From positions 1-41,539 of the IMG/VR virus record IMGVR_UViG_3300044681_000334: a DNA stretch of 41,539 nucleotides; one strand, 5' to 3'. Under the pieces are notes generated by a model, which worked only from the letters and a program-made list of their open reading frames with translations, ran no database searches and was not told the origin of the DNA. The stretch comes from a virus. The position numbers were made by a program, and so were the translations under genes. Shown one piece after another: positions 1 through 41,539 of this stretch (within the stretch, counting starts at the first letter, position 1; each line of letters opens with the position of its first letter).

Positions 1-156
1 TGCCAGTCTTCGGGCCGACGATGTTCGTGGCCTCGAAAGGCCCGCCTTCAAGCGGCATCTCGTAGTTGACGATGCCGACGTCGACGATGAAGCCGTTGGC
101 ATCGCGACCAGCGACCGTGCCGTTTGCAAGCGTCGCGCGCTTGAACAGCATGTTCG
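1..156. repeat. Terminal direct repeat, left copy (matches 41384-41539)
   Basis: Bases 1-156 align without gaps to 41384-41539. The only difference is base 30 (G) against 41413 (C). The repeat lies inside the coding frame of the giant virion protein, and the frame is continuous through both copies. That is what an overlap at the ends of a circular assembly, or reads from a terminally redundant genome, would give. It does not look like a regulatory repeat. Whether it marks the packaged DNA ends cannot be decided from the sequence; being inside a gene argues for an assembly overlap. Confidence 0.93.
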
Positions 157-3100
157 GGTCGCCAGCCATCGACTCTTCCATTGCCTTTGCGCCAGCCTCT
201 GCGACGTCGCGGCCCGGCTGGCCTCCAAGCGTTCCGGAGATGTACCTGCCGCCTTCTCCAGCAAAGTCGCGGCGCAGACCCCTCTCAAAACTGCCAAGGT
301 CGAGTTTCTGACCAAGGTTGTAGTGCCAATGATCTTTCTCTGCGAACCACATGATCGCCTGAAGGTCTGCCGCCGTGATGCCCGGAACGATGTCGTTCAG
401 TCGCTGCGCAGCAAGCGAGAATGCTTCAGCGCCGACGCCGTATGCGCCGCTGATGCCGAATCCGCGAGTGGCGCCAGTAACCGCTCCGGTTGATGGATCG
501 ACAATCGCGCCCGCTTCCTTGCCGTAGGTTCCCTGAACGCCTTCTTCTGCCGATGGAGCGATTCGACCACGCTCCTGACGTCGTGCTTCGCCAAGACGCT
601 CCCACAGAGTTCCGGCAGCGGACTCGTCCATTGCCACGCGCGGCATGTTTGCAAGACGCTGCAACGTTCGAGCCGCCCAAACGTCGACGGTCGCCATGTT
701 GAAGTCACCAAGCAGGTTCTTGGTGAAGTTGCGCGTCTTCGGATTGCTGCCGTACTTGACGGTCGCCCACATTCCAGCAAGGACGCGCATGGCCGATTCG
801 GTGTTGCTTCCGAACAGGTTGCCGACGTCGCTGCGAATCTTCAGTTCTTCTGCGAACTCCGGCTTGAGGCCAACTTCCTTCTCGACAAGAGCAGTCACTT
901 CCGCAGGGCTTGGCGAGGCAAACTTGCCCTTTACCTCTTGTACCGCTTGGGCATACGTCATGCCCTGTTCGCGAAGTTGCGCGATGGCAGCCTTGCGTGC
1001 CTCGCCTCGCTCTGCCGAACCAGCCTCACGAATGCGCTTCTCTGTTTCAGCGTATCGAACTTCGTATGCCTGCGACTCTTCGAGGTAAGCGACGTACTTC
1101 GCCATCTGATCGTCGTACATCCCGCTGGTGAACTGACGCAGGATGTCGGTCGCGTAGCGCCAGTTGGTTGCAACCGGAGTCTTTGCGCTAGTAGCACCAA
1201 GCAGTTCGGCAAAGATGTCGGAGTACGGCCCGTACAGGCCGCGCACGTTTTCCGCAATGTCGCGGTACCAGCGCCCGGCAGACATGACAGCAAGCATGCG
1301 ATCCTTGACCGGGCTATCGCCAGTCTGCTGTGCAGCAGATTGCATGATGCGAACTTCGTCGACCATCTTGGTGGCAAGGTCTTCGACGCGAGCCTGCCAC
1401 TTCGGTGAGCCGGGCTTCAGCGCATCGCCCATCTCGTCGAGATGGAACGTGTGACCCTGCTTCTCGAACTTCCAAATGGCCTTGAAGTTGCCTTCGTCGT
1501 CAACGTCGAACTTGAGCGACGGATTCTCCTTGTTGCCAGCAGCGATGGTTGGCGTAGACCACCCATCCTGCGGCGAATACTTGTCGCGCAGTTCGCGCAG
1601 GGCATCCTCTGCCATCGTGCGCAACTGGCCCGGAAGGCGCTGGACATCCGCTTCCGTCAGGGATTCAGGGATGACGCCTTCCGGCCACAGTTCTTCCTTC
1701 TTCCACCAGTTCTTCTTGGTCGAGTAGACGGCGACCGCATCGTTGATCAGCAGGCCCATGTCCTCGCCTACGCCACCACGAACGATGGCGCTGGCGCCTT
1801 GCTCTCCAGCCTGACGCATCTGCTCCGCGCCTTCGTAGAGCAACTTGTGCATGCGCTCGCTGACGTTGTCGGGAAGCGTGAAGAAGATGCGCTCCCAGTC
1901 AAGCCCGGCAGCGGTGAATCGACGGAACAGCACGTCGGCCTGATCGGGCGCAACGTTGAACGAACTGGCGATCATGGCGCGCGTGACGCGGCGAACTCCA
2001 TCGACGTACTGGCCCAGCGGGAACTCCTGCTGAACCTTGACCAGCGCCTCTTCATGGGTCATGCCGTCGTTCAGCAGTTGTCCCATGCGTCGGCTTCGCT
2101 CAACGCCGTATGCAGTCAGTTCAGCAACAGCGCGAGCCGTGTCCTTGCTGATTGCCGCCTCGCGAATGGGGCGCGGCATCGTCTTGAGGATCGAATCGGG
2201 TTCGAGGCCGCCGACCTTCTCCAAGTACCTGATGGTGTTTGCCATCGTCGCGCGAGTTGCGCCTCCACCAGCAGCAGCAGCAGCCTTGATGCCGGGCGTC
2301 GCGGCCTCGACAACGCCGGAAAGAATGGCTCCTTCAAGGAAACTGACAAGTCGGCCACGGAATCCCTTGCCTTCCTCCGTCAGTTCCTTCGCATCGAATG
2401 CAGCCAGCGCATCTTCGCCGACTCCGAACTCGCGAAGCATGGTCGAGAGGTTGCCAAGTCGAGGATCAAAGACAACCGCAGCGGCGATCTCTCCTGCGGC
2501 GGCTGCGCGAATCAGTTGGCCTGCGGTTCCGGCCTTGCCAACCTTCATCAGAGCGGCGGCAGGCCCGTATCCGACGTAGAACTGCGCGATTCCTCCAGCC
2601 AGTTGCGGGATCACGTACTCCGACGAGTACATGTTGTCGGTGTACGTCAGGGGTGTCCCACCAAAAACATCCCTGACGACAAGGTTGTACACCGACTCGC
2701 CAGCGCGCTGCGGAGCCTGCAAGGCCATGCCTGCTGCGTCGACAATGTTGTTCCACACCCAGCCAGCGCCATACGATCCGGCGGTTCGGTTTGGGTCGCC
2801 AGCGTCACCCACGGTAAGGCTCGAAGGCCACTTCGTCCATGACGTGAGGAAACTGTCCTTGCCTTCTGTCTTGTAGTACCACGCGACGTAATCGTCGTAT
2901 GTGAAGTACCCAGTTCGCTTCTTTGCGAGGTTGACGGCAGACTGCCGCTCCATCGCGTCGCGGCCCGGAGCGGTGTCGCGGTCAATGCGCATCCACTCGT
3001 TCAGCGCCGCAAGCCTGTCTTCGGGCGAACTGTTTGGGTCGAGGACAATGTCGCCATAGTCCTTGAGCGCCTTGCGCTCCTTCTCACCAAGAACCTCCGC

Positions 3101-3673
3101 GCGGTACGGGTTCAGCCGCGAAAGTTGCCCGGCTTCAATGGCGCTTTCGTAGGTGGCAGGAGCGTTCGCGTCGTCAAAGGCCGTGCTTGCCCGGATGTTG
3201 TTCAGGATGGACGTAGCGTTCTTCTGATCGTCGGTTCCTGCGACCTGCATGACGAGCGGAAGGATGCTTGCATCCTGTCGCATCTGTGCCTGCATGAGGC
3301 GCATTGCCGCAATCTCGTCCTGCGGATACATCGGGCTGCCGCTCTCGCCCATCCTGACGACATCGCGCATGGCCTGCTCTTGCGTTCGGTCAAGCGACGG
3401 CGGCGCTCCGTAACGCTGCTGAAGATTGCTCTCTGAAAGTCGAGCGCGTGCAGCAGCAGCCGCAAGCGCTGGAGTGTCTGCACCGGAAGCAGCGAGTTCT
3501 TCGGTCGCCGACATCTTGCCAGCGGCACGGAGTCGTTCGGCGTAAGCCTGCTCCGCTGGAGAGTTGAGCGGAGTCTGCGACACCGACGTTCCGCTCGCCA
3601 AGTCTGACGGCGTTCCCGCTCGCTTGTCGAACATGCGGTCGGAGTTGTTGTCGTCGGTAGGAGGCAGGTTCAT
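1..3673 (-). CDS. Giant internal virion protein, N-terminal part (runs off the left edge; continues at 41383)
   Basis: Open frame from ATG at 3673 to the window edge with no stop. Its ATG overlaps the stop of the gp15-like gene (ATGA). It starts MNLPPTDDNNSDRMFDKRAG and codes residues 1-1224; crossing the terminal repeat it stays in frame with the 36879-41539 segment, giving about 2,725 residues in all. The position after gp14- and gp15-like genes and before terminase is that of T7 gp16, the internal core protein ejected into the cell, but the protein is roughly twice as long as T7 gp16 (about 1,318). Ala/Gly-rich hydrophobic stretches lie near residues 345-400 and 440-470. I see no lytic transglycosylase motif at the N-terminus, where T7 gp16 carries one. 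Role is inferred from position and size. Confidence 0.88.
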   Translation of the reverse strand, partial: MNLPPTDDNNSDRMFDKRAGTPSDLASGTSVSQTPLNSPAEQAYAERLRAAGKMSATEELAASGADTPALAAAAARARLSESNLQQRYGAPPSLDRTQEQAMRDVVRMGESGSPMYPQDEIAAMRLMQAQMRQDASILPLVMQVAGTDDQKNATSILNNIRASTAFDDANAPATYESAIEAGQLSRLNPYRAEVLGEKERKALKDYGDIVLDPNSSPEDRLAALNEWMRIDRDTAPGRDAMERQSAVNLAKKRTGYFTYDDYVAWYYKTEGKDSFLTSWTKWPSSLTVGDAGDPNRTAGSYGAGWVWNNIVDAAGMALQAPQRAGESVYNLVVRDVFGGTPLTYTDNMYSSEYVIPQLAGGIAQFYVGYGPAAALMKVGKAGTAGQLIRAAAAGEIAAAVVFDPRLGNLSTMLREFGVGEDALAAFDAKELTEEGKGFRGRLVSFLEGAILSGVVEAATPGIKAAAAAGGGATRATMANTIRYLEKVGGLEPDSILKTMPRPIREAAISKDTARAVAELTAYGVERSRRMGQLLNDGMTHEEALVKVQQEFPLGQYVDGVRRVTRAMIASSFNVAPDQADVLFRRFTAAGLDWERIFFTLPDNVSERMHKLLYEGAEQMRQAGEQGASAIVRGGVGEDMGLLINDAVAVYSTKKNWWKKEELWPEGVIPESLTEADVQRLPGQLRTMAEDALRELRDKYSPQDGWSTPTIAAGNKENPSLKFDVDDEGNFKAIWKFEKQGHTFHLDEMGDALKPGSPKWQARVEDLATKMVDEVRIMQSAAQQTGDSPVKDRMLAVMSAGRWYRDIAENVRGLYGPYSDIFAELLGATSAKTPVATNWRYATDILRQFTSGMYDDQMAKYVAYLEESQAYEVRYAETEKRIREAGSAERGEARKAAIAQLREQGMTYAQAVQEVKGKFASPSPAEVTALVEKEVGLKPEFAEELKIRSDVGNLFGSNTESAMRVLAGMWATVKYGSNPKTRNFTKNLLGDFNMATVDVWAARTLQRLANMPRVAMDESAAGTLWERLGEARRQERGRIAPSAEEGVQGTYGKEAGAIVDPSTGAVTGATRGFGISGAYGVGAEAFSLAAQRLNDIVPGITAADLQAIMWFAEKDHWHYNLGQKLDLGSFERGLRRDFAGEGGRYISGTLGGQPGRDVAEAGAKAMEESMAGDPNMLFKRATLANGTVAGRDANGFIVDVGIVNYEMPLEGGPFEATNIVGPKTG

Positions 3674-5730
3674 CGCTTGTTGGACTCCGTCTGCATGCGG
3701 CGCGTTCCATCGGTGTGGAACTGCTGGATGGTGTCAATGGTAAACAACGGCTCAAGCGTGTCGAGCAGTTCCTCGCGAACCTTGAACGGCTCCGTGCGCA
3801 TCCTCGCCTGAATGTCGGGGCGCATCAGGAAGTTGTTGACCTGACGGTCGTAGTCGCGCAGCAACTTCTGACGCTTGAGCGTGACGCCCGGCTCCGAAAC
3901 GGCCTTCAGCGCGCCAGTCGCCTGATCGACGATGACACGGCCTTGCTCCTTGGCGAAGGCCAACTCCATCATGTCGAACTCTTGTGCAATAGTTCTGCGC
4001 ATCTCTTCGACGTCGACGTCCTTGCGAATGGTCGATCCTGTCTGCCACGCTGCACGGGCATCCTGAACGCGCTTGAACGCTTCCGGCGACAGCATGCCGC
4101 TCTGACCAAGCAACTGGGCGTCGGTTTCGATTGCCTGCATCTCTTCAGGCGTCGTGGCTTCGCTCATGCGCACAAGCATGCGCGTAGCGTTGTCGTCGCG
4201 GAACTGGTTGCCTTCCGTGCCAGCCAGTTTGCGGAACATGATGGTGGCGCTGGGGCCGTACTTGTCGGTCAGTTTGGCGTTGAAGTCGGCGACCTTCTTG
4301 GGATCGCCAGTAGCCGGGCTGGCGAGGAACAGCATGATCTCCGTGGTCATCACGTCGTCACGCTTGTCGTTGTTGTCCTTGATGAACTTCGCCTCCGTGT
4401 CGCGAAGCGCCATCAGCCTGTCGATCCTGATGTTGAGGTTCTGAACCACCTCGTCGCCGGGCTGGAACACCATGCGCGAGTCGAGTTCGACTGGCAAGTC
4501 CATGTCGTCCCAGTCCTTGTCTGTCAGTTCCTCGCCAGCCTTGAGTCGGTCGTATGCCGCGTTGTACTGCGACATGATCTTCTGCGCCGCGTTTGGATCA
4601 TTGGGGTTTGGGCTGATCGCCTCGCGGTCGACGTCGACCGGATACGTGTACAGGCCATCGACAAGCGCCTGCGTAAACGCGATTCGGTCGTCGATTGGAA
4701 GCGTGTTGTCGAGAATGATGGCGTCGGCGTCGGTGATGAATCTGCGCTGCGCATCAGCATCCCAGCCGCCCATGTCCTGCATGCGACCGATGGAGTGAGA
4801 GATGGCATCAGCGCGCCTGCTCATCTCCATCCGCGACTCCATGACGGAGCCAGTCGGGTTCCTTTGCAGGTAGTGCAGCGCCTGAATGTTGGCCTTGACG
4901 AACTCTTTGTCCTCTTCGACGGTCGCCTTGCGGAGTTGCGCCTCAAGAGTGCCCCACTTGTCAGGGCTTGCGTCCTTTGCGGCTGCGCTCATCAACTGGC
5001 TCGTCTTGATGTAGTCGCCCTTGTCGAAAGCCAACTGCGCGGCAGGAAGCAGGATCGTGTCGGCGTACATCTGATCGTTCCAGTTTTCCCGCATCCACTC
5101 GTACTCATGCTGCGACTGTGGATTGCCTTCGCGCGGAGCAGGGAAGATTTCTCCGAAAGCCTGATCGCGCGACGGGATCGCCGTCTGTGACGTGACGCCC
5201 TTGACGAACGTGTTGATTCGGTAGTCGCGCTCTTCCTTGCGCATGCTGGTGCGCATCTCAATCGCGGCATCAACAGCATGCGGAACGAATGCGTTGGCAA
5301 AGCCGGAAACGACGAGCGGATCGGCGCCCTCGCCCATGATCTGCGTCGCCACGGCCTGATACCAAGCGGGGAGTTCGTCATCGCGCACGGCGTCAGGCGG
5401 CGCGTACTTGGCGACGTTTGGATCGAACGGCGCCTTCGGCAACTGCTTGACGATGGCGATGTCGTCCATAGCAGCGTCGGCGCCCTGCCCCTGCTTCATC
5501 GTCGCGTACTCGCGCTTGCCAGCACGCTCCTGCGCGTAGAACTGACCAAGTTCGTTGAACGCGCCTTGCGCCGACCGCAGAGCAAGCATGATCTGCTGCA
5601 ACTGGTCGGGGACGTTGACCGCATACACGGGCACCGGATCGGTGCGAAACCGATAGTCGGGCGGCGGCGGCAGTTCGTTGCCTTGCAGCAGCGTCGTCGG
5701 TAGTCGAGGGGTTTCGTTTCGCTGTGGCAT
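3670..5730 (-). CDS. Internal virion protein, T7 gp15-like by position
   Basis: 686 residues, close to T7 gp15 (747). Hydrophilic and largely helical-looking, with no signal peptide or membrane segment. The N-terminus is Pro-rich (residues about 8-26), followed by long charged helices. In T7-like phages the gp14-gp15-gp16 set forms the internal core and, on infection, a conduit across the periplasm. Here the gene sits between a gp14-sized gene and the giant gp16-position gene and overlaps the latter by ATGA. No catalytic motif is visible. Assignment rests on order and length rather than a recognisable domain. Confidence 0.75.
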   Translation of the reverse strand: MPQRNETPRLPTTLLQGNELPPPPDYRFRTDPVPVYAVNVPDQLQQIMLALRSAQGAFNELGQFYAQERAGKREYATMKQGQGADAAMDDIAIVKQLPKAPFDPNVAKYAPPDAVRDDELPAWYQAVATQIMGEGADPLVVSGFANAFVPHAVDAAIEMRTSMRKEERDYRINTFVKGVTSQTAIPSRDQAFGEIFPAPREGNPQSQHEYEWMRENWNDQMYADTILLPAAQLAFDKGDYIKTSQLMSAAAKDASPDKWGTLEAQLRKATVEEDKEFVKANIQALHYLQRNPTGSVMESRMEMSRRADAISHSIGRMQDMGGWDADAQRRFITDADAIILDNTLPIDDRIAFTQALVDGLYTYPVDVDREAISPNPNDPNAAQKIMSQYNAAYDRLKAGEELTDKDWDDMDLPVELDSRMVFQPGDEVVQNLNIRIDRLMALRDTEAKFIKDNNDKRDDVMTTEIMLFLASPATGDPKKVADFNAKLTDKYGPSATIMFRKLAGTEGNQFRDDNATRMLVRMSEATTPEEMQAIETDAQLLGQSGMLSPEAFKRVQDARAAWQTGSTIRKDVDVEEMRRTIAQEFDMMELAFAKEQGRVIVDQATGALKAVSEPGVTLKRQKLLRDYDRQVNNFLMRPDIQARMRTEPFKVREELLDTLEPLFTIDTIQQFHTDGTRRMQTESNKR

Positions 5731-5735: not shown

Positions 5736-6326
5736 TTACGACATCGGAAGTGCGTTACCGAACATGTCCTGATTCGGGCCTTGCAGTTGCCGCATGCCGC
5801 CAGCGATGGACAACCCAGTACCAAGTCCCTGAAGCCCACCCGTGATTCCCGAAAGGAACGGGTTCTGCGCCTGCATGGAGTAGTTCATCGCCTGCGACTG
5901 GTACGCCTGCGTGCTCGACAACTGCTGCTGCTGATAGTCGAGGTTGGCGCGGCGCACGGCTTCGTATCGGCCACGTTCGATCATGTCCTTGGCGAACGAC
6001 TCGTCGAAGAACAGTTGGTTCATCATCTGTTCGCCGACGCCGCTTCCAGTCGACAGGCCGCTCATGGCAGCGCCTGCGCGCAGGCGCCCGCGAGCGGCGG
6101 CTGCTTCGCGCTCCTTCATGCGAGACTCTGCCGCAGCGCGGTCGGTGATCTGCGATTCGATGAGGTTGCGCTGGGATGTCAGTTGCTTCTGACGATCCTG
6201 ATTCGCTGCGGCCTGCATGGCGATGCCCTGCCTGATCCGCTGATTCATCATCACAGCGCTCGCGGTAGATGCCGCCGCGCTTGCAGCCGTGATTGCGATG
6301 ACTGCTGCGATTTCTCCACCTGTCAT
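5736..6326 (-). CDS. Internal virion protein, T7 gp14-like
   Basis: 196 residues, the same length as T7 gp14. The N-terminus is a small-residue hydrophobic segment (GEIAAVIAITAASAAASTAS, residues 4-23), followed by a charged Gln/Arg/Ala-rich helix (about 25-90) and a Gly-rich C-terminus. This architecture (membrane-active N-terminus, coiled region, Gly-rich tail) is usual for gp14-type core proteins that insert in the outer membrane on ejection. The ATG at 6326 overlaps the tail tubular B stop (ATGA), so this start is preferred over longer upstream options. The next gene begins 5 bases downstream. Confidence 0.72.
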   Translation of the reverse strand: MTGGEIAAVIAITAASAAASTASAVMMNQRIRQGIAMQAAANQDRQKQLTSQRNLIESQITDRAAAESRMKEREAAAARGRLRAGAAMSGLSTGSGVGEQMMNQLFFDESFAKDMIERGRYEAVRRANLDYQQQQLSSTQAYQSQAMNYSMQAQNPFLSGITGGLQGLGTGLSIAGGMRQLQGPNQDMFGNALPMS

Positions 6327-8698
6327 TGCTTGTACTCCCGCAGAGTTGCAAACGTACCGTGATACTCGACACCGCTCCACGTAACCGGGAGGACGGTATC
6401 AGACGTAAGTTTGATGACGCACCTGTTTGCCTGCGTGCTTACCCAGCACGTGTGCAGCCCGCTGTCGTCAAAGCCTCCTACAGGAACGAACGCGGTAGAC
6501 GTCGAGATTCCCGGGTTTCGAGCAACGTCGACCGTGTACTTTCCGCTGTTGACGTGGTCGACGATCAACTTGTGCAGCATCGTCCGTCCATCCGTGATGG
6601 GCCTGTCTTCGCTTCTGAAGATGACCTCGCTCAACTCAATGAAGGCGTCGTAGTTGCGCCCAAGAATCACTTTCTTGGCGCTGTGGTTCCCGGTGACGCG
6701 GATGGTTCCGTTGACGTGCGTCGCGGCAGCAGTCGTGAAGTCATCGAACACGCACGTGTCAATGGCAGCGTTGTAGTAGCCAAGGCTCCATGACGTGTAG
6801 TTGCCTCCGGCGTTGTACGTTCCCTGCCCAGCGTTGAACATGCGGTACTGGTCGAGTTGAACCTGATTTGTCCACCCTTCCTGCGGCGACGATTCGTCTG
6901 TCAGGTTCATCTTCTCGACGAAGATTCCCGACGTGCCCGACGCTTGATCGTCGTCACGGCGCAGGATGAACAGTTCGTCGTCGATGATCTTCGCGTCTTG
7001 AATGTTGTCGGTGCCGAACTGCCACACGCCCCAAGCGCTCTGCTTGCGCTCGTTGCCAACGTTGTACGAACGGTACACGTACATGTACGAGGCAGGCAGG
7101 GTTCCCTTCGGAGCAGGTGCCGGATACGAGTCGAGCGTAACGGTGTGTCCCGACGTGATGATTGCCGTGTCATACGGCTGCGGAGGGACGTCGCCAACCC
7201 ACGTTGATGACGTGCTCCAGTTGCCAGTCTGTGCGCTGATGACGATTCGTTCGATGTCATCCGCTTTGGGGCGTGCGATGCAGCACACCATGTCGCTGTT
7301 CGCGCTTGCGTCCATGCTGATGACGTCTACCGGAAGCAGGTCGTCGACGTGCTTGGTGACGTCTGCCGCGACGTTGCTGACTGCCGTGTCGGAGTAGAAG
7401 TATTCGTAGAGCAGCGTCTTGCTTGGGTGGTCGCCAAGCATGTAGATGCGCTCGCCGACAGCGACAGGACGGATGTTCTTGGTCGAGTATCGCGTGCTTG
7501 GGCTGACGGCAACCTGACCCGGGCCGAACACGTCACCGCTGGTGACTTCAAACTGCTGCCCGGCCCGGGTCAGGACAAGAACGGATCGGCGGTAAGGTAC
7601 AACGTGATCGACGATTGTGACGTCGTTTGCGCTCAACTGAACTTCGATGGGGTCGGCATCGGTAAGCAGGTCAGCCCGTTCCTTGAACAGGTTGAACAGG
7701 TCGTCCGTAGCGCTGAAGAACACAAAGTCGTCGCTGCACAGGATGAGCCTGTTCCGGAAGTATCCGATGTCGCTGACCTTTCGCCCGCCGACGATGAACT
7801 TCGGCGCTGGCTGGGTAAAGTCCTCGCCTCTTCCAATGGTGTATGCAGAGTTGTTCATCGTCGACGACACGATGCTGACAAGGCTGTCAACCTTCAGGTC
7901 AGGCGAGAAGTCGACGTAGATAGGCTTCTCCGGCAGAGGCCCGCCAGTCACGATGATCTTGCCACGGACGATTGACCTGATTCCTACGATGGCGTCGTCA
8001 GGGTAGTCGTCGGGGTCAAGGCCGTTTCCGGTCAGGCATTCCTCAATCTGCTTGGAGTTCGCGTTCCACGGAACGGTCGTCGGCGTCGTGTTGCCTAGAT
8101 ACCGCATCTTGAATGAGCCGCTGGTTGGCGCTGTCGATCCAGCAGCGATGACCTGCCTGTAGAACGTTCGCTCCTTCCAAGTACACACGTCGATGCTGAA
8201 TGCCAGCGGAGTCGTCGTCGTTCGCTGCATGCGAACAGGCATCGTGTTGGCATCAATCCCGACGCCATTCAACTTGGTCGCAGTCGGACGAAGCGTGTTC
8301 GCGATGAAGGTGTTGTCAGCGATAGTGACAAAGCGAAGGTTCTCTGCCTTCGCGCCGCCGTATGCAAGATATTGCGCAGCGGCTGTGCTGACGGTAGGCG
8401 TGACGACGGTTCCGGCGTTGACGTCGATGATTCGGATGTACCCTCCCGACCCGCAGACGACGAGGTATTCCTCCTCATCGTCGCGCTCAATGCGGTGCAG
8501 GCGGTACTGCTGGTTGTACGTCGCTCCGCTGATGAAGGCTACGTGCTTCGTTCCTGATCGCTTGCGAGCGCCGTCGACAACGTTGAAGTTGACGTTGAGC
8601 GAATCGGCAACCTGACCCGGATACCGGATCGTCGGCGACTGCTTGCTGATGCCGTGCATCAGCCCGGGGATGCGCTGGTACAGGTTTGCCGTTGGCAT
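6323..8698 (-). CDS. Tail tubular protein B (T7 gp12-like nozzle protein)
   Basis: 791 residues, almost exactly the T7 gp12 length (794). The N-terminus MPTANLYQRIPGLMHGISKQ, then SPTIRYPGQV and NVNFNVVDGARKRSGT, is the typical opening of this family (IPNLxxGVSQQPxxxR, N.xxxxxxGLxKRPGT). The protein forms the distal tail nozzle that plugs the channel before DNA release. GGAGG lies 4 bases before the ATG. The gene follows the second tail tubular A gene after a TAAATG junction and precedes the internal virion protein genes, matching T7 order. Confidence 0.9.
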   Translation of the reverse strand: MPTANLYQRIPGLMHGISKQSPTIRYPGQVADSLNVNFNVVDGARKRSGTKHVAFISGATYNQQYRLHRIERDDEEEYLVVCGSGGYIRIIDVNAGTVVTPTVSTAAAQYLAYGGAKAENLRFVTIADNTFIANTLRPTATKLNGVGIDANTMPVRMQRTTTTPLAFSIDVCTWKERTFYRQVIAAGSTAPTSGSFKMRYLGNTTPTTVPWNANSKQIEECLTGNGLDPDDYPDDAIVGIRSIVRGKIIVTGGPLPEKPIYVDFSPDLKVDSLVSIVSSTMNNSAYTIGRGEDFTQPAPKFIVGGRKVSDIGYFRNRLILCSDDFVFFSATDDLFNLFKERADLLTDADPIEVQLSANDVTIVDHVVPYRRSVLVLTRAGQQFEVTSGDVFGPGQVAVSPSTRYSTKNIRPVAVGERIYMLGDHPSKTLLYEYFYSDTAVSNVAADVTKHVDDLLPVDVISMDASANSDMVCCIARPKADDIERIVISAQTGNWSTSSTWVGDVPPQPYDTAIITSGHTVTLDSYPAPAPKGTLPASYMYVYRSYNVGNERKQSAWGVWQFGTDNIQDAKIIDDELFILRRDDDQASGTSGIFVEKMNLTDESSPQEGWTNQVQLDQYRMFNAGQGTYNAGGNYTSWSLGYYNAAIDTCVFDDFTTAAATHVNGTIRVTGNHSAKKVILGRNYDAFIELSEVIFRSEDRPITDGRTMLHKLIVDHVNSGKYTVDVARNPGISTSTAFVPVGGFDDSGLHTCWVSTQANRCVIKLTSDTVLPVTWSGVEYHGTFATLREYKQ

Positions 8699-18024: not shown

Positions 18025-18517
18025 ACCCTTGCTCCTCAAGATACCGTAGAAGCCCGCCCGGTGATCTACAAGACCTTGGGGTCGGGATTCCCATTTGGGA
18101 CAAGCATGTTCGGGCCACATCGGCGCAATCGTTCGATGGCCTGATGACGTCGAATGTGTAATACTTGACGATGGTCGTCCACGCATACCCGCGCTTGCCG
18201 ACCATGTCTTTGAACTGGTCGAGGTCGGGCGGGTTGTCCGTCCAAACCCTGACATAGGCGAACGTGCCGGGGTACTTCATCCAGTACCCAAGCCAAGGCC
18301 AGTAGGCAGCCCCGGCGATTGTCGAATCAAACACCGCTTGCGAGTGCCCGACAGCAACATGCGACGCCTCGCAGCCAGTCAGGAACTGCGTCCACCGTCC
18401 CAGCCACCATGCGTAGAACAGCATTGGGTGCCTTCGGGCTATGCGCAACATATTGCGCACGCCTCCCCAGTCTTTGGTGCTGCGCGGCTTGGCGAAGATG
18501 AAGTAGACGGGCGTCAC
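17903..18517 (-). CDS. Papain-like (YiiX/NlpC-P60-type) hydrolase candidate
   Basis: 204 residues from a GTG that overlaps the RNA polymerase stop (GTGA). A His in the segment TGCEASHVAVGHSQAVFDST (residues about 48-67) is followed by the C-terminal segment NDCADVARTCLSQMGIPTPR. The order His first and Cys later is that of circularly permuted NlpC/P60 (YiiX-like) hydrolases, which act on peptide-type bonds. It may therefore degrade peptidoglycan and serve as endolysin, as no lysozyme or amidase is evident elsewhere, but this is inference. The C-terminal 35 residues are polar and overlap the next gene in another frame. Confidence 0.55.
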   Translation of the reverse strand: MTPVYFIFAKPRSTKDWGGVRNMLRIARRHPMLFYAWWLGRWTQFLTGCEASHVAVGHSQAVFDSTIAGAAYWPWLGYWMKYPGTFAYVRVWTDNPPDLDQFKDMVGKRGYAWTTIVKYYTFDVIRPSNDCADVARTCLSQMGIPTPRSCRSPGGLLRYLEEQGYETVRFADTLADDGRSVDSGTRHAEPASHADGTSESRRPD

Positions 18518-20862
18518 GACAGCATGTAGTGGGCGTTGGCGGTATCGGTGATGACCAGTTTGCCGCGCTTGGGCAGCGGCTTGATGGCTGCACCCGGGTA
18601 CTTGGTGCTCCACTCCTCCGCGAGTTTGGTCAGGGGGTCAGACATGTGCAGCCCAGCGAAGTGCTGGCGAGCGATGGCGTGCAGTTGAGCGGCATGCTCT
18701 GACGTCGTCCACACAGAATCATGCACTCCGGCGAACGGCAGCCCTTCCTCGCCAGCAGCCATCGCCATGCCGTGCATCTGCGACGCTTCGAGGCTCTGCA
18801 CGAAGTTCGCGAACACGCCGCGCATCTGTCGGCGCCTATCTGACGGCGCGCTTGAGTCCGTGTCGACGATTGTGATGGCCTGCATGGCCGTCCTCACGAC
18901 GTTGCGCTTGAACCGCCTGTACGGCTGGATGATCGGCATGCCGCTCGCGGAGTTCCATTGGAGCACAGCGTGCTTGTCGGTCTTCAAGCATGCTCTCGCA
19001 GACTCTTCGATCCAGTCGACGACAAGCATGCCGTTGCGAAACGCATCGTGCATGACGTCGAGCGCCTGATCGCTGATCCATCTTGCGAGTTTCATACGAC
19101 GTTCCATCGGAACAGACTTCGGAAGCGCAGACTTCACTTGATTCGCAGCGCCGTGCCTGCTCACTCTGTACACCGTCGTCATCAGAGGTCGCTTCAGCAC
19201 GCTTCGCACGATATGCGGCAGCGCTTCAGTCGCCATCGCATCGCCGTTCTCTGCGAGTTCGCATATGTGTCGGTGTATGCGCTTCACGACGATCTCGTAT
19301 GGATCGACGGGCTTGTTCGATTGCGACAGGTTGACGAGTTCGGCGGCATCATCGTCAAGGCCAAGCGCGACGATGTGCTGAAGCGCGTTCGCCGTGTGGT
19401 CGAGTTGCACCGGAATGCATGCAGCAACCTCCGGCCTGTTGACTCCGACGCAGCATGCAAGGAACTGCCACGGGTTGTCCGCTTCGTGCCACCATGTTTC
19501 TTCGAGCGGATCACGACCCACGGAGAGCATGCGCTTCTTGTGCTTGTTCGCCCAGTCGACGCGCTCCTCGAATGACTTGCGCTGAAAGCCGTGGCCCCAC
19601 GTGTTCGCGCAATGCATGGCGAACCAAGCCTCGTCGACTTCGCCGCCACCGTCAGCGAACAGCAGCAAGCCTCGACTGAAGTCTCCCTGATGATGATTCA
19701 GGTCTGACGGCATCGGGTGCATGCGGCCACGCCAGTCAAGGCGATGCGGCATGTAGAAGATGTTCGCGATCAGGTCTTGCGCAGCGCTCATTCGTCGCAG
19801 GAACTTCGAGCGCTCTGCCGCTGCTATTCGCTCGCGACCGATTGCCGCTGCTGCTTCGCGCTTCCATGCCTTGATTGATCGCTCATCGGTCGGCTTCGGT
19901 GTCGGCATCTGCACGTCGGGATTGCCGATGCCGGGAATGTTCGCGCTCGTCTTCCACAGTTCGATGGCGACTGCGAGCACAGTCGCGTTGATCTTCCAAG
20001 GTTGCTGGCTGGCGACGTCGAGCGCAACGCGCTGATTCGCAAGCGGATCGCGAGACAGAATCTTGTCCTGCTCCGGCGTCGTCTTTCCGACCATCGGCAT
20101 GTCGAGCGACAGATATCCACCGATGCCTTCGCTCCACAGCCTTGGCGGCACGATCATCGCAGCGTGCTTCGGACGCATCAGCGAGCGAACACCGTGCGCT
20201 TCGTCGATCAGCGCAACTGCCGTGGTCGTCAGCCGGATCGCACCGATGCGACGCGATCCATTTCGGATCGTGCATCTCTCGAACGCTGGGCGCTTTGACT
20301 CATAGTCTGCCATGCACACGGCCATTGCGATGCTGATGCACCTTGCGCCAAGAGCGACGCACACCTTGCGGTTGAACAGCGAGTTCGCCATCGACGAGCG
20401 TGCATATGCATGGATGCTGCATGCGGTGATCTTGCGGAGCCTTCTGTCGATCACAGTCTTGATGCTGACTCCGCTGTCTTCGATGATGTCCGCTTCCGCT
20501 TCGGCGATGATGGCGCTGCCGATTCTGTATGCAAGCGTTCCGATCTTGGCACCGTCCGCATCGCGCATCGCGGCGTTCAGCATCTCCGTGATCGTGATGA
20601 GCGCACTTCTGTCAGCGTCGATCAGCATGAGCGCTGGCCCATACAGGGCGCAGCCCGGCCCGTTACGGCCACGCATGATGGCGGCGCGCTCCTGTCGGAT
20701 TGCTGCGAACAGCGGCCCAACCCATGCGCGCGTCAGCCTGCGCGCAGCGCCAAGCGACGCGCCTTCACCGCCGACGATGGCATCGTTCGCCATCGCGTGA
20801 TACTTGCGGACGCCGTCGGCGACCGATTGCTTCTCACGCCTTTCTTGTTCGCGGCTTTCCAT
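18514..20862 (-). CDS. Single-subunit DNA-dependent RNA polymerase (T7-type)
   Basis: 782 residues, against 883 in T7. Palm and fingers motifs are visible. DWRGRMHPMP (376-385) and GDFSRGLLLFADG match the T7 DWRGR and KGLL segments. Motif A is QLDHTANALQHI with Asp488. Motif B is RSVLKRPLMTTVYR with Arg553, Lys557 and Tyr565. Motif C is VHDSVW with Asp715. These align position for position with T7 D537, R627, K631, Y639 and D812. Odd: the Gly after motif-A Asp (T7 G538) is His489, and the Gly after motif-B Tyr (T7 G640) is Arg566. It presumably transcribes middle and late genes. GGAGG lies six bases before the ATG. Confidence 0.95.
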   Translation of the reverse strand: MESREQERREKQSVADGVRKYHAMANDAIVGGEGASLGAARRLTRAWVGPLFAAIRQERAAIMRGRNGPGCALYGPALMLIDADRSALITITEMLNAAMRDADGAKIGTLAYRIGSAIIAEAEADIIEDSGVSIKTVIDRRLRKITACSIHAYARSSMANSLFNRKVCVALGARCISIAMAVCMADYESKRPAFERCTIRNGSRRIGAIRLTTTAVALIDEAHGVRSLMRPKHAAMIVPPRLWSEGIGGYLSLDMPMVGKTTPEQDKILSRDPLANQRVALDVASQQPWKINATVLAVAIELWKTSANIPGIGNPDVQMPTPKPTDERSIKAWKREAAAAIGRERIAAAERSKFLRRMSAAQDLIANIFYMPHRLDWRGRMHPMPSDLNHHQGDFSRGLLLFADGGGEVDEAWFAMHCANTWGHGFQRKSFEERVDWANKHKKRMLSVGRDPLEETWWHEADNPWQFLACCVGVNRPEVAACIPVQLDHTANALQHIVALGLDDDAAELVNLSQSNKPVDPYEIVVKRIHRHICELAENGDAMATEALPHIVRSVLKRPLMTTVYRVSRHGAANQVKSALPKSVPMERRMKLARWISDQALDVMHDAFRNGMLVVDWIEESARACLKTDKHAVLQWNSASGMPIIQPYRRFKRNVVRTAMQAITIVDTDSSAPSDRRRQMRGVFANFVQSLEASQMHGMAMAAGEEGLPFAGVHDSVWTTSEHAAQLHAIARQHFAGLHMSDPLTKLAEEWSTKYPGAAIKPLPKRGKLVITDTANAHYMLS

Positions 20863-29400: not shown

Positions 29401-29437
29401 GGTCATGCTCCGGTAGGGGTTGGGGTGCGATGCGGGA

Positions 29438-29466
29438 AGTATAGGGTACGTTCGGGGTGCTGTCAA
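29438..29466 (-). promoter_or_regulatory. Sigma70 promoter (early unit)
   Basis: Minus strand TTGACA (29466-29461), 17 bases, TATACT (29443-29438). The spacer begins with GCACCCCGAACGTACC, closely matching the promoter at 30834-30862. The -35 overlaps the stop codon of the upstream 447-residue gene. Confidence 0.85.
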
Positions 29467-30806: not shown

Positions 30807-30833
30807 GGTAGGTGCTCCGGTAGGGATGCGGTG

Positions 30834-30862
30834 AGTATACGGTACGTTCGGGGCGTTGTCAA
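30834..30862 (-). promoter_or_regulatory. Sigma70 promoter (early unit)
   Basis: Minus strand TTGACA (30862-30857), 17-base spacer, TATACT (30839-30834), near consensus. Leader about 20 bases with CCCTACCGGAG (30825-30815) before ATG 30806. Confidence 0.88.
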
Positions 30863-30870
30863 GTCGAGCC

Positions 30871-30896
30871 GGGGAGCGCCCCGAAGGGCGCCCCCC
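30871..30896 (-). terminator. UUCG-loop hairpin after the ArdC gene
   Basis: GGGGGGCGCCC pairs with GGGCGCTCCCC around TTCG on the minus strand (one A/C mismatch). No T-tract follows, but a promoter for the next unit begins 9 bases on. Likely unit boundary. Confidence 0.5.
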
Positions 30897-30905
30897 GTGC
30901 CCGGT

Positions 30906-31907: not shown

Positions 31908-31962
31908 GGTAGGGTGCTCCGGTTCGATGCGATTCGCCCGGCGACGTGCTGGGCATGCATGC

Positions 31963-31991
31963 ACCCTACGGTATACGTCCGGTGCCGTCAA
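31963..31991 (-). promoter_or_regulatory. Sigma70-like promoter of the ardC unit
   Basis: Minus strand TTGACG (31991-31986), 17 bases, TAGGGT (31968-31963; weak -10). The spacer starts GCACCGGACGTATACCG. The leader folds into a hairpin at 31936-31954, seen also in two other units. Confidence 0.65.
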
Positions 31992-32002
31992 GGTGAATCC
32001 GG

Positions 32003-36610: not shown

Positions 36611-36882
36611 ACGGCTTCCTTGTCGTCATTCGCCAGCGGGGTGCCGATGCGAAGTTGCCGCCTGCGCATCTCTTCGACGATGTTCTTGATCGGGCTGGCC
36701 TCCTCTGTCGCCACGGTCATGCCGCAGTCCTTGAGCCGCTGCCGTATCACGTTCAGGTCTGCCGCCGTCGCGTCGATGGTGCGCTCCTCGCCATCGGGGC
36801 CGATGATGGTTCTGCCATCCTTCAGCACCTTGAGAAGCGCTCGGTCGAACTGGTCGGCCATGTCGCGCATCGTGTCGCTCAT
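36607..36882 (-). CDS. terS: Terminase small subunit (T7 gp18-like)
   Basis: 91 residues, against 89 in T7 gp18. MSDTMRDMADQFDRALLKVL, then TAADLNVIRQRLKDCGMTVA: a helical protein with an Asn-Val-Ile-Arg-Gln-Arg-Leu-Lys segment as in T7-like small subunits. Directs DNA to the large subunit. ATGA overlap with the giant protein gene upstream and GTGA with TerL downstream. Confidence 0.85.
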   Translation of the reverse strand: MSDTMRDMADQFDRALLKVLKDGRTIIGPDGEERTIDATAADLNVIRQRLKDCGMTVATEEASPIKNIVEEMRRRQLRIGTPLANDDKEAV

Positions 36883-39800
36883 CGTGTCGCCGCCTCCACG
36901 GCTGCTTCAAGTTCGGAGTTGCGGTTCTCGTTCATGCGAGCAGCGTCCTTCTTGCGCGAGTCGATCAGAGCGCGTCGTCGCTCGTCGTACACGGCGCGAA
37001 GTTCGGGGCTTGACGTCAGCGTCTGCTGCCACGCCGCAGTACGGTAGCGTTCGATCACTCGCACGAACATTGCGATGTTCGGCGGGTTCTCGCCCGGGTA
37101 GTTCTCCGGGTTCGTGTCCGTGAACGACTTGAACATGCGGCCTTCGGCGCCCTTGCCGTCGACGATGTGCTGCAACGCCTGACGCAGAGTCAGTTTCTTC
37201 TGCGTGCCGTCGCCCATCGGGAACGGCATGGTGACCGACGCGATGTTCTCGTTGTACAGGTCGTATGCAGTCCTGCTCGTCTGCGGCACGCGAATCTGCT
37301 TCAGATTGACGCCGTCCTTGTTCGGCGGCGTGCTGCGCCAAATGTGCGGCATCTCGACCATCGCTTCGATGACGGCGTCGTCCTGCGCCTTGCGGCTGAC
37401 GACCGGAGAAACGATGTCGACCCACGGGTAGTCCTGCATCGGATCGAACGTCCTGATCGGCTCGCCAAGAGCGCTGTACCTGCGCGCCATGACGTCGCGA
37501 CCGCCTGCGGCCTGACCCCACCAACTCTTGGCGCGCATCTCGTTGAGAAGAACTTCGACTTCCTTGCCAAGACCCTCGTCTGCCTTGACGCCGCCAAGCG
37601 GATCGACGGCATACGGGTCTGACGCGCGAAGCACTCCGGCCTGAAGGCTGGATGCAATGCTCGTCGGAGGAAGCGCGGTCAATGCCATGCGACCGATGAC
37701 CTGCTCCATCTTGATCGGGTCGTCGTTGGCCTCCATGAGCATGTCGAGGTTCATCATGTACGACTTGTTGATGGTCGTCATGGTGAGCGCGTATGCGATG
37801 GCCGTTGCCGGGCCAATGACCTCTTCCTCGTCGTTCTCGTACATGCCCGACGTGAGTTCGTGGTAGTCGGCCATCCAGCCAAGCATCATGCCGAACGGGT
37901 CGAGTTTGTTGTAGACGTACCAGCGGTCGCCCATCTTGACGGAGTATGGCTGGCGTCCAGTCTGCTGCCAAAGCCTGCGCTGTTCCGGGTCGGCAGGCCC
38001 GGCTCCCGTGAGCCGTCCATCCTGAAACAGCGCGTATCCGGTTCCAAGCGCAGTCATGCCGACAAGCACCTGACCCTGCGCGCGAGAGATGCGCGCCGGA
38101 TCGCCCGACGCCATGTCGAGCATGGTCTGATGGTGGAATCTGTACAGGCGGCTGTTCGGATTGATGCGGAGCCGACGTTCGGTCGCAAGTCCGACGGCGA
38201 CGTCGCCACCCACCATGATCGGCGACGTCAGGTAGCCCCACGCGCGACGGAGGATGTTGACCGGAGCCGTGTAGAACGGGACGACCAACTGCAACCACCA
38301 GTTCTGCTGGAGGTGGTGCCTGACGGCGCCACCAAGCCCCGGGATCGGTTCCGTGTACGACTGGCGGTTCGCAGCCTCCGCGATTCCTGCGGTGGTCTGC
38401 TGCTGATCCTGCGTCCAATGCTGGTTGACGTAGTCGTGCATCATGGACGCGCGACGCAGCGGGTCTTGCTCTGCTGCGATGCGCGGATCGTTGAACGCCT
38501 CGCGACCGATCATCGTCCTGTCACGGATTGCACCGTCGCGGATGTACCGCTGGCCCATCGCGTCCGCTTCCTGCGAAACGGCACGGTGGTTGGTTCGCAT
38601 GAACGCCAACTGATCACGCCATCCGGTCACTCCAGCGGCTGTCATGCGCTCCTGCATCAGGCGTCGGTACAGGGTGCTGTGCATCTCCGTGCGAGCCGTG
38701 ACCTGCTTCCAAAACTCGTCGATGCTTGCGATGAACGTGGACGGCAGACGAACGCCGCGCCCCGCTGCATTGATCATCGTTCCAAGGATGTTCTGCTGAT
38801 CGGAGTGGATCGCAGGAACGAACGTGTCCTGCACGATGCCCGTGCCGTGAGGCATGAGCGTCGGCCTTTCCTCGACAAACGTGCGTGCTGCGAATCGCAG
38901 ACCGTGGTTCATGTTCGCGATCATGCGCGGCAGGTTGCGCAGGGTTTCCGTGGCGGTCAGCATGTCGCCACGGACGCCAGCGACTGCGAGTTTCTGCAAT
39001 CCCTCGACGCCAAGAGTCAACGGAGGGCTGATGACCTGAAGGCCGAACCAAGATCGCGGAAGCGACAGCAGTCCGTTGCGGTACACCTCAAGAAGCAGGT
39101 TGCCGCGCTGCATCTCTCCCGGGCGCCACACGTCGTTGAGGATGCGAACCGCAGCGTTGGGGTCGATGTCGGGGTCGATGCGCGCAAGCGTTTCAGCAAG
39201 CGGCCTTCCGATGTTGTCGACAAAGCCGTTCTGCTCAAGGAAGTTGCGGGCGTTGCGAAGATCGCGCAGTTCCGCTGCGTTCGGCAGCATCTGCGGATCA
39301 AGTGACTTGAGGCCACGTCCCATCGCCGTCTTCGTGTTGCGCATGTGGAAGCGCAGCATCTGAAGGTCAAAGAACGAGCGCTGAAGCAGAGCGAAGTCTG
39401 CCGGGTTGTTGCTCTGAACAGCGCGCTGTGCAAGCCTGTGCACCTGACGCAACTGTCCCTGAAGCGCCAACTGCACCGTGCTGACGAACGCAGGCAGTTC
39501 GGTGTCGATGCGGCTGACGTCGTTCATCCGTGCCCACATCGAAGCGATGCCCTGCGACAGGTCGTCGGCATCGTTCATCAGCAGTTCGTTGAACAGGGAC
39601 AGCGAGCGACGGGTCAACTGGTCGCGCGTCGCCGGGCCGCCAAGCATGTTGCGGGCCTCCATCTCCCGCGCCAGCGACTCGAAGTACGCCATGTAGATCA
39701 GCGGATCGTCCGGGTTCTCGAAGAACCGGAGGTTGTCACGGATGTGCTCGCGGCGCGCGTCGATGTCGGCAAGTTGACGGGTCGCGTCGGCGTCGCCAGC

Positions 39801-41539
39801 GGCTGCGCGCGTGCGCAGGTCTGCCATCTCCGTCGGCGTCAGGTTGCGTCCATCGGGCGATGCAAACGCGCGCTCGCGGTCGGTTCCGCGACGGAAGCGG
39901 CCCGTGGCCGGATCGCGCATCGTCGGCCTGCCGTCGAACACGTGCATGCGCGCCGTGCCCAGCGCGTCATTCGGGTTGATGACCTGAAGCCAGTCCTCTC
40001 CGTTCGACTGCGCCTGCTGGATGCGAGCGATGACCGCAGAGTGGTCAATCGGCATCAGATATCGGCCCGGCGCGTACTGGATCGGAAGGTCGGTACGGTA
40101 GTACAGGTTCTCAAGCAGGCGCCGCGTGTCGGTCGGCACGCCAGTAGACGCAGGTGCGTTGCGGGCGACGCGCCATTGGTCGCGCAGCCACGACGCCATG
40201 ATCAACTGCTCGTCGCGTCCGACGCCAGCAAGCCGGGCCGGAACGGCAGTACCGTCCTGCAACAGGGAGACAAGGTCGTCGGCGAATGCCTCTTCCTGCG
40301 CGCGAGTCCACGTTCCGTTGACGACGCCGTATGCCTGCTCGAATGCGTCGATGGTGGTGTCGGGGATTCCGGCACGGCGCTCAATCGGAAGGTTGCGGTT
40401 GAGCAACTGATTGCGCAGAGCGTGGCCGAACTCATGGGTTGCCGACACGATGTCGGGCATGTTCAGCCCGGCGATGAACGCGATGCCAGTCTGCTCTTCG
40501 ATTGCAGCCACGGCGCGCGCCTGTGCGCCCGACGTGTTGAAGAGAATCTTGGTGCCGTCGTTGGGGTTTACATTCGGCGCTTGGGCAGAAACATCACCAT
40601 CAGTCGCTCTGACTGCTCCGGCTCCGACGGCATCTTCGATTGACTGTCCATCGGGGGCTGCGTCGATGCCTGTGGCTGCATCTCGCTTCCGCTGGGAGTT
40701 GCGGTAGATTCGATCTTGAGGGCTGTCGGGCTGCCACTTGCGGGCGACTGCTTCGGTTGCATTCTCCGTTCCTTCTGCCGCAGACTGCGGCCCAATCAGT
40801 TCATCGAACTGATGCGAATGATAGACGTCGATCTCGACGTCGAGCGACGTTGCGCGACCACCGTTATTGAGGAACGGCTTCTTCTTCGTCCGCTCGACAA
40901 GCGCGTTGAACTGTCGCTTGCGCTTGGTAATCATCGACGCGATCTCCGCAGCAGTCGCTCCGGTATCGGACATGGCGATGATCTGCGGATCGAAGTCGGG
41001 TACGTAGATGGATCGCGCTCGCGTGATTCCGTTGACGTTGTTCGTAGCGCGTTCGGCGGCTGACTCGAACTGCATGCCGAACTCCGCAAACGAATCGCGA
41101 AGGCGCTTGACTTCGGGCGAGGTTTCGGACAGCGGATTCGCAAACTCAAACTCGACGCCGATGGTTCGAGCGGTATCGACGGTCGTCCCTTCAGCCACCG
41201 TGACTGGCTGGACATCAGCAACCTTCTGACCGCCCTTCGCTTTTGGAGTCACCTGCACTTCCGCTCCGGTCAGCGGCGTGACGATGCGGGCGACATAGAA
41301 CGCCTCGCTATCAGACTCCTTTGCGTGCTTTGCCATGCGGCTGACGACCGCGTCCGCGCTGGCCTGATTCAGTTGCCGCTTGTTGCCAGTCTTCGGGCCG
41401 ACGATGTTCGTGCCCTCGAAAGGCCCGCCTTCAAGCGGCATCTCGTAGTTGACGATGCCGACGTCGACGATGAAGCCGTTGGCATCGCGACCAGCGACCG
41501 TGCCGTTTGCAAGCGTCGCGCGCTTGAACAGCATGTTCG
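36879..41539 (-). CDS. Giant internal virion protein, C-terminal part (open at right edge; joins 1-3673)
   Basis: In-frame continuation of the 1-3673 segment; the ATG at 41534 is an internal Met (residue 1175). From residue 1175 to 2725: a zinc-peptidase motif HEFGH (1541-1545) within SATHEFGHALRNQLLNRN, followed about 45 residues on by EEAFADDL (Glu1589, a candidate third ligand). Then a long helical region, and a C-terminal section with NPNSRLYRFHHQTMLDMASG, LVGMTALGTGYALFQDGRL, RQPYSVKMGDRWYVYNKLDP and FGMMLGWMADYHEL, as in very large phage proteins at the gp16 position. It lies just upstream of TerS (ATGA). Such proteins ride in the capsid and enter the host with the DNA. Peptidase activity is inferred from the motif. 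Confidence 0.87.
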   Translation of the reverse strand, partial: NMLFKRATLANGTVAGRDANGFIVDVGIVNYEMPLEGGPFEGTNIVGPKTGNKRQLNQASADAVVSRMAKHAKESDSEAFYVARIVTPLTGAEVQVTPKAKGGQKVADVQPVTVAEGTTVDTARTIGVEFEFANPLSETSPEVKRLRDSFAEFGMQFESAAERATNNVNGITRARSIYVPDFDPQIIAMSDTGATAAEIASMITKRKRQFNALVERTKKKPFLNNGGRATSLDVEIDVYHSHQFDELIGPQSAAEGTENATEAVARKWQPDSPQDRIYRNSQRKRDAATGIDAAPDGQSIEDAVGAGAVRATDGDVSAQAPNVNPNDGTKILFNTSGAQARAVAAIEEQTGIAFIAGLNMPDIVSATHEFGHALRNQLLNRNLPIERRAGIPDTTIDAFEQAYGVVNGTWTRAQEEAFADDLVSLLQDGTAVPARLAGVGRDEQLIMASWLRDQWRVARNAPASTGVPTDTRRLLENLYYRTDLPIQYAPGRYLMPIDHSAVIARIQQAQSNGEDWLQVINPNDALGTARMHVFDGRPTMRDPATGRFRRGTDRERAFASPDGRNLTPTEMADLRTRAAAGDADATRQLADIDARREHIRDNLRFFENPDDPLIYMAYFESLAREMEARNMLGGPATRDQLTRRSLSLFNELLMNDADDLSQGIASMWARMNDVSRIDTELPAFVSTVQLALQGQLRQVHRLAQRAVQSNNPADFALLQRSFFDLQMLRFHMRNTKTAMGRGLKSLDPQMLPNAAELRDLRNARNFLEQNGFVDNIGRPLAETLARIDPDIDPNAAVRILNDVWRPGEMQRGNLLLEVYRNGLLSLPRSWFGLQVISPPLTLGVEGLQKLAVAGVRGDMLTATETLRNLPRMIANMNHGLRFAARTFVEERPTLMPHGTGIVQDTFVPAIHSDQQNILGTMINAAGRGVRLPSTFIASIDEFWKQVTARTEMHSTLYRRLMQERMTAAGVTGWRDQLAFMRTNHRAVSQEADAMGQRYIRDGAIRDRTMIGREAFNDPRIAAEQDPLRRASMMHDYVNQHWTQDQQQTTAGIAEAANRQSYTEPIPGLGGAVRHHLQQNWWLQLVVPFYTAPVNILRRAWGYLTSPIMVGGDVAVGLATERRLRINPNSRLYRFHHQTMLDMASGDPARISRAQGQVLVGMTALGTGYALFQDGRLTGAGPADPEQRRLWQQTGRQPYSVKMGDRWYVYNKLDPFGMMLGWMADYHELTSGMYENDEEEVIGPATAIAYALTMTTINKSYMMNLDMLMEANDDPIKMEQVIGRMALTALPPTSIASSLQAGVLRASDPYAVDPLGGVKADEGLGKEVEVLLNEMRAKSWWGQAAGGRDVMARRYSALGEPIRTFDPMQDYPWVDIVSPVVSRKAQDDAVIEAMVEMPHIWRSTPPNKDGVNLKQIRVPQTSRTAYDLYNENIASVTMPFPMGDGTQKKLTLRQALQHIVDGKGAEGRMFKSFTDTNPENYPGENPPNIAMFVRVIERYRTAAWQQTLTSSPELRAVYDERRRALIDSRKKDAARMNENRNSELEAAVEAATR
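41384..41539. repeat. Terminal direct repeat, right copy
   Basis: Same as 1-156 with one mismatch at 41413 (C for G), which changes one Gly codon (here) to Ala (left copy) in the giant protein. The frame is intact in both copies. Confidence 0.93.

What the first reader, a model, noticed from the sequence alone, without database searches (positions are those of the whole stretch)
36879..41539. About 2,725-residue virion protein with an embedded zinc-peptidase motif
The joined frame is twice the size of T7 gp16 and lacks an obvious transglycosylase motif. It carries HEFGHALRN and a downstream EEAFAD instead. Large phage proteins ejected with DNA that mix several enzymatic domains are known as polyvalent proteins; a metallopeptidase delivered with the genome could cleave a host target or process the protein itself.
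Basis: partly seen in the sequence, partly recalled or inferred. Interest (0 to 1): 0.75.

Follow-up and report, generated by a model that had tools for sequence, protein, structure and literature searches.

The report
Giant phage ejection protein with peptidase
In one lineage of T7-like phages, a protein expected to be injected into the host with the DNA is about twice its usual length because it carries a roughly 1,300-residue insert, which includes a very strongly conserved zinc-peptidase-type domain that was not found in any isolated phage searched.

Summary
The gene crosses the contig ends; collapsing a 156-bp end overlap gives 2,725 residues, with HEFGH at 1541-1545 and Glu1589. Uninterrupted relatives (2,426-2,724 aa) show the frame is real. 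The protein is a gp16-like ejection protein (internal virion protein D) of a phage with T7-type RNA polymerase, capsid and terminase. Residues 348-458 and 1783-2725 match ordinary ~1,300-aa relatives (hhalign E 2.5e-11 and 2.9e-64). Between them lies an insert of ~1,320 residues: DUF7178, an unnamed conserved domain, a disordered linker and the HExxH domain. All eight giant lineages found keep HExxH and the matching Glu; ordinary-size relatives have no HExxH. The domain has very low dN/dS (0.03-0.07). It is homologous to HExxH domains of other giant (polyvalent) phage proteins (E 1.2e-18), but Pfam MPTase-PolyVal matches only at the motif, and there is no match in 50,697 phage or 72,556 plasmid records. 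Structure prediction was too weak to place the zinc site. Best reading: a polyvalent-type zincin inserted into an ejection protein, most likely cutting the protein itself at the adjacent linker; host-target cleavage remains possible. New variant of a known kind.

The parts
1..3673 (-). N-terminal 1,225 codons of the giant gene (runs off the contig end)
   Evidence: in frame with 36879-41539; one ORF in L001, L002 and others
36879..41539 (-). C-terminal part of the giant gene, residues from 1225 on, plus stop; 41384-41539 repeats 1-156
2300..2632 (-). N-terminal ejection-protein segment, residues 348-458
   Evidence: hhalign to ordinary internal virion protein D, E 2.5e-11
326..1603 (-). DUF7178 module, residues about 691-1116
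   Evidence: Pfam PF23802 E 3.6e-11; 40 viral relatives; AF2 pLDDT 89
1..325 (-). unnamed conserved domain, first part (residues 1117-1225)
   Evidence: alignable in seven other giants
40737..41383 (-). unnamed conserved domain, second part (residues 1225-1440)
40530..40736 (-). linker, residues 1441-1509, predicted disordered; candidate self-cleavage region (inferred)
   Evidence: low pLDDT; disorder-prone composition in 7 of 7 giants; highest dN/dS
39927..40529 (-). HExxH metallopeptidase-like domain, residues 1510-1710
40422..40436 (-). HEFGH, residues 1541-1545
   Evidence: invariant H, E, H in relatives
40290..40292 (-). Glu1589, putative third zinc ligand in WTRAQEEAFADD
   Evidence: invariant
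36882..39710 (-). C-terminal ejection-protein region, residues 1783-2725
   Evidence: hhalign E 2.9e-64 to ordinary internal virion protein D; PHROG internal virion protein
3670..5730 (-). gp15-position gene, 686 aa
   Evidence: gene order as in T7 and ProddE; no family hit beyond a sub-threshold TPR match
6323..8698 (-). nozzle (tail tubular protein B)
   Evidence: Pfam Phage_nozzle E 2.2e-92
18514..20862 (-). T7-type RNA polymerase
   Evidence: Pfam RNA_pol E 1.1e-85

Best explanation
The protein is a gp16-type ejection protein (internal virion protein D) that has become a polyvalent protein. About 1,320 residues are inserted between its N-terminal segment and its C-terminal region, where ordinary relatives have a shorter, disorder-prone stretch. 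The insert ends with a zinc metallopeptidase-like domain (His1541, His1545 and Glu1589 as ligands, Glu1542 as base). Shown: gene continuity, ejection-protein homology on both sides, the insert, and strict conservation of HExxH and the Glu. Inferred: the protein is packaged and ejected with the DNA; the domain binds zinc and cuts peptides; its most likely substrate is the protein itself, at the disordered linker (1441-1509), freeing the N-terminal cargo (DUF7178 and the unnamed domain) from the peptidase plus C-terminal region during or after entry.
For: Single ORF of 2,426-2,724 aa on ten other contigs. Profile homology on both sides of the insert. T7-like gene order and genes. HExxH and Glu kept in all eight giant lineages, no HExxH in ordinary-size relatives. 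Very low dN/dS, 0.027 and 0.065. Homology to HExxH domains of other giant phage proteins, one of which also has ART-PolyVal. Disorder-prone linker directly before the domain in 7 of 7 giants. Autoprocessing is the main role proposed for such domains (PMC5512222).
Against: No structural confirmation of the zinc site. No experimental evidence of cleavage. N4 vRNAP, with an HExxH domain, is packaged unprocessed (PMC5512222). A disordered linker may be only a tether. No virion proteomics.
Confidence: 0.5

Rival explanations
1. The metallopeptidase is an injected effector: after ejection it cleaves a host protein (defence, transcription or envelope factor), and the ejection protein itself stays whole.
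For: PMC5512222 lists host-directed cleavage as an alternative for these domains. In T7 the C-terminal part of gp16 is placed in the cytoplasm (PMC8954989), so an insert next to it could reach host targets. Strong constraint on the domain fits a catalytic role of either kind.
Against: The domain always sits directly after a disorder-prone linker, which suits self-processing; no host target is suggested by any data here.
Confidence: 0.27
2. The peptidase acts during virion assembly, trimming itself or the neighbouring core proteins inside the head, and plays no role in the host cell.
For: PMC5512222 reports that phage P1 DdrB is processed before packaging and infers its MPTase domain as the cause.
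Against: Nothing in the sequences distinguishes this from cleavage on entry.
Confidence: 0.13
3. The HExxH domain is structural or binds metal without proteolysis.
For: The fold could not be confirmed; HExxH also occurs in enzymes that are not peptidases (noted for N4 vRNAP in PMC12633501).
Against: The catalytic Glu1542 is invariant, not only the metal ligands.
Confidence: 0.08
4. The giant frame is an artefact of joining two contig ends.
For: The contig is cut inside the gene, and its ends overlap with one mismatch.
Against: Ten other contigs carry the whole gene as one ORF of 2,426-2,724 aa.
Confidence: 0.02

Closest known systems
Internal virion protein D / gp16-like ejection proteins (T7 gp16; Roseobacter phage CRP-114 gp40)
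   Same: Gene position after nozzle, gp14- and gp15-position genes; homologous segments at both ends.
   Different: Twice the length of those in the published comparison (609-1,337 aa, PMC8954989); ~1,320-residue insert; no transglycosylase match; T7 gp16 itself is too distant to match.
Polyvalent proteins with zincin-like MPTase domains (Iyer et al. 2017, PMC5512222)
   Same: Several modules in one giant, presumably injected polypeptide; HExxH plus downstream Glu; domain homologous to those of other giant phage proteins.
   Different: Carried in a gp16-type ejection protein; that paper's text does not mention gp16 or internal virion proteins. Only a motif-length match to Pfam MPTase-PolyVal.
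N4 virion RNA polymerase (PMC12633501, PMC5512222)
   Same: Giant ejected virion protein with an internal HExxH domain followed by a large, mostly helical C-terminal part.
   Different: N4 carries an RNA polymerase; here the polymerase is a separate T7-type gene. Profile similarity does not go beyond the HExxH motif.

Membership tests
gp16-like ejection protein (internal virion protein D) | Homology of the C-terminal region to annotated members | tested here: met
   hhalign 100%, E 2.9e-64, 786 columns; tblastn hits in 29 phages
gp16-like ejection protein (internal virion protein D) | Gene order tube, nozzle, gp14-, gp15-, gp16-position genes in a T7-like genome | tested here: met
gp16-like ejection protein (internal virion protein D) | Detectable homology to T7 gp16 itself | tested here: inconclusive
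   hhalign against the single T7 sequence: E 0.38; the published group averages about 20% identity (PMC8954989)
gp16-like ejection protein (internal virion protein D) | N-terminal transglycosylase domain (T7 type; not universal in the group) | tested here: not met
   No Pfam hit; also absent from P22-like members (PMC8954989)
gp16-like ejection protein (internal virion protein D) | Present in the virion and ejected | not testable with these tools
   needs virion proteomics
Zincin-like metallopeptidase (gluzincin type) | HExxH motif | tested here: met
   residues 1541-1545, invariant in relatives
Zincin-like metallopeptidase (gluzincin type) | Downstream Glu on a following helix | tested here: met
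   Glu1589 invariant, in a predicted helix
Zincin-like metallopeptidase (gluzincin type) | Zincin fold with the three ligands converging | tested here: inconclusive
   AF2 mean pLDDT 57, no Foldseek match
Zincin-like metallopeptidase (gluzincin type) | Zinc binding and proteolysis | not testable with these tools
   needs bench work
Pfam MPTase-PolyVal (PF18818) | Match to the family profile | tested here: not met
   No hit for any of 14 members; hhalign aligns only 9 columns at the motif
Polyvalent proteins | MPTase domain shared with other polyvalent proteins | tested here: met
   hhalign E 1.2e-18 against reversed controls E 0.11-0.12; L017 also carries ART-PolyVal
Polyvalent proteins | Several disparate biochemical activities in one polypeptide | tested here: inconclusive
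   Three distinct conserved modules, but only the HExxH domain has an interpretable active site

The most novel reading that the evidence does not exclude
A lineage of T7-like phages carries a self-cleaving ejection protein: the built-in metallopeptidase cuts the protein at the linker during entry, so that an N-terminal cargo with a DNA-glycosylase-like DUF7178 module is released into the host while the C-terminal part stays with the incoming genome.
Probability: 0.2. Interest if true: 0.75.

Novelty: new variant of a known kind. Interest (0 to 1): 0.5.

Why it matters
Podophage ejection proteins are known mainly as channel builders, at most with a cell-wall enzyme. This lineage shows one turned into a carrier of roughly 1,300 extra residues, including a peptidase domain under tighter constraint than the ejection parts themselves. 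It gives a defined place to test what the metallopeptidases of injected giant phage proteins cut, and when, a question posed in 2017 (PMC5512222).

Tried and rejected
(1) False join at the contig ends: rejected, relatives have one ORF. (2) Chance HExxH: 2% by shuffle, rejected through conservation. (3) Known peptidase family by Pfam or PDB sequence: no significant hit. (4) Structural confirmation of the zinc site: inconclusive. (5) DUF7178 as an HhH-GPD (endonuclease III-type) DNA glycosylase: the motif order looked similar and some depositors name stand-alone homologues 'glycosylase', but hhalign scores were no better than or barely above reversed controls and no such fold is among the 50 best PDB hits; kept as an idea only. 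(6) Homology to the N4 vRNAP HExxH domain: only the motif aligns. (7) The genome-contig scan with the first alignment found nothing; with the wider one, two bacterial loci and one probably mis-binned viral contig. (8) PDB sequence profiles of DUF7178: only short matches, nearly all to TPR-like or designed proteins. (9) Literature: no paper in the held library contains both 'internal virion protein' and 'polyvalent protein'.

Full report
OBSERVATION. The window is a virus record of 41,539 bases cut inside a single minus-strand gene. ORF 2-3673(-) runs off the left end and re-enters, in frame, as 36879-41537(-). Related contigs carry the gene whole: L001 2,723 aa (96% identity), L002 2,724 aa (78%), and a distant relative L004 2,556 aa (26%). 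HEFGH and WTRAQEEAFADD were re-read at 40422-40436 and 40275-40310.

WHAT IT IS. The genome has a T7-type RNA polymerase (18514-20862), capsid, head-tail connector and terminase, nozzle and tube genes, then a ~205-aa ORF, a 686-aa ORF and the giant gene: the tail and ejection-protein order of T7 and ProddE. The last third of the protein matches internal virion protein D of Roseobacter, Pelagibacter and cyanophages. A profile of five giants against a profile of five ordinary-size proteins (1,142-1,334 aa) gives E 2.9e-64 over 786 columns, joining residue 1783 onwards to residue 486 onwards of CRP-114 gp40. A second match joins residues 348-458 to 165-265 (E 2.5e-11). Some 1,320 residues in the giant therefore stand where the ordinary protein has about 220; in CRP-114 that stretch holds its two most disorder-prone windows. 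T7 gp16 alone is too distant to match. The gp16-like proteins of a published comparison are 609-1,337 aa (PMC8954989).

THE INSERT. It contains DUF7178 (691-1116), an unnamed domain (about 1117-1440) alignable in seven other giants, a linker whose composition lies in the 98th-100th percentile of disorder propensity in 7 of 7 giants, and the HExxH domain (1510-1710). Across 14 relatives the only invariant positions are H1541, E1542, H1545, W1583, T1584 and E1589; with more divergent members T1584 drops out and the others remain. Scanning with the C-terminal region, together with the earlier scans, found eight giant lineages (window/L001/L003; L002; L110/L116 with L014; L015/L016; L004; L111/L115; L036; L114). 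Every copy that reaches the domain keeps HExxH and the Glu; the ordinary-size homologues L118, L119 and L006-L010 have no HExxH. L114 is split into two overlapping ORFs, probably by a frameshift, and DUF7178 is not found in it, but the peptidase domain is intact. Five of six records of the family searched carry a T7-type RNA polymerase.

SELECTION. Between the window and L001/L002, dN/dS of the HExxH domain is 0.027 and 0.065. The linker has 0.32 and 0.55; the C-terminal region 0.08 and 0.16; the N-terminal 480 residues 0.17 and 0.27. The 60 residues after the domain show no amino-acid change against L001, but 0.12 against L002.

FAMILY. No significant Pfam or PDB sequence match exists for the HExxH domain. 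Its profile is homologous over about 130 columns to HExxH domains of other giant phage proteins that also contain DUF7178 (99.1%, E 1.2e-18; reversed controls 0.5%, E 0.11-0.12), with Glu1589 aligned to the Glu of HEQFAYN. A 4,724-aa protein with the domain also has ART-PolyVal. Pfam MPTase-PolyVal and N4 vRNAP align only at the motif. tblastn found no match to the domain in 50,697 phage or 72,556 plasmid records at E 0.01; the relatives come from metagenomic viral contigs and a few bacterial or MAG contigs. Iyer et al. (PMC5512222) describe zincin-like domains as the commonest domain of polyvalent proteins, propose autoprocessing before or after entry or attack on host proteins, and report N4 vRNAP as packaged unprocessed.

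STRUCTURE. AF2 of 1440-1790 with 14 sequences gave mean pLDDT 57 (higher, about 65-87, across the core). AF2 of DUF7178 gave pLDDT 89, pTM 0.84, with significant matches only to predicted viral proteins. DUF7178 also exists as stand-alone ~195-aa proteins in mycobacteriophages, some deposited as 'glycosylase', and in a T7-like cyanophage.

HOW IT PROBABLY WORKS. Shown: one gene, ejection-protein homology at both ends, a large insert, and a conserved HExxH/Glu domain under very strong constraint. Inferred: virion packaging and ejection; zinc-dependent proteolysis; self-cleavage at the preceding linker. I put the polyvalent-type metallopeptidase with self-processing at 0.5 and host targeting at 0.27. 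In T7 the C-terminal part of gp16 is placed in the cytoplasm (PMC8954989), so an insert ahead of it could act there; this is an inference.

VERDICT. Real, and a new variant of a known kind: polyvalent-protein metallopeptidases are known and ejection proteins are known; their combination in a gp16-type protein of T7-like phages was not found in the papers or the isolate genomes searched here.

Noticed in passing
window 326-1603 (-); L131, L132, L135: The DUF7178 module is homologous to stand-alone ~195-aa phage proteins, some deposited as 'glycosylase'; its motif order resembles HhH-GPD DNA glycosylases, but this did not pass controls.
   Followed up: partly
L114:3315-9513: One relative of the giant gene is split into two overlapping ORFs, probably by a frameshift, and has a different module (RVLYIEEIQSDL) where the others have DUF7178, while the HExxH domain is kept.
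   Followed up: partly
L017:4781-18955; L061:2741-18250: Giant proteins of 4,724 aa (four HExxH motifs, ART-PolyVal) and 5,169 aa (DUF7178 and the same peptidase domain) in other viral contigs.
   Followed up: partly
L071 (PBMS01000049.1): A contig binned as a Euryarchaeota MAG matches L016's peptidase domain at 100% and encodes the same-length 2,557-aa giant; it looks like a mis-binned viral contig.
   Followed up: no
window 1-156 and 41384-41539: The contig ends overlap by 156 bp with one mismatch, suggesting a circular assembly of mixed strains.
   Followed up: yes
window 28000-32000: G+C rises to 70-72% against 58-64% elsewhere in most of the genome; the genes here are mostly unassigned.
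   Followed up: no
window 10641-12305 (-): A 554-aa protein with a Laminin_G_3 (concanavalin-like) domain, probably a tail fibre or receptor-binding protein.
   Followed up: no
L135:11941-16773: The cyanophage S-CBP42 internal virion protein is 1,610 aa, above the 1,337-aa maximum of the published comparison; its extra content was not examined.
   Followed up: no
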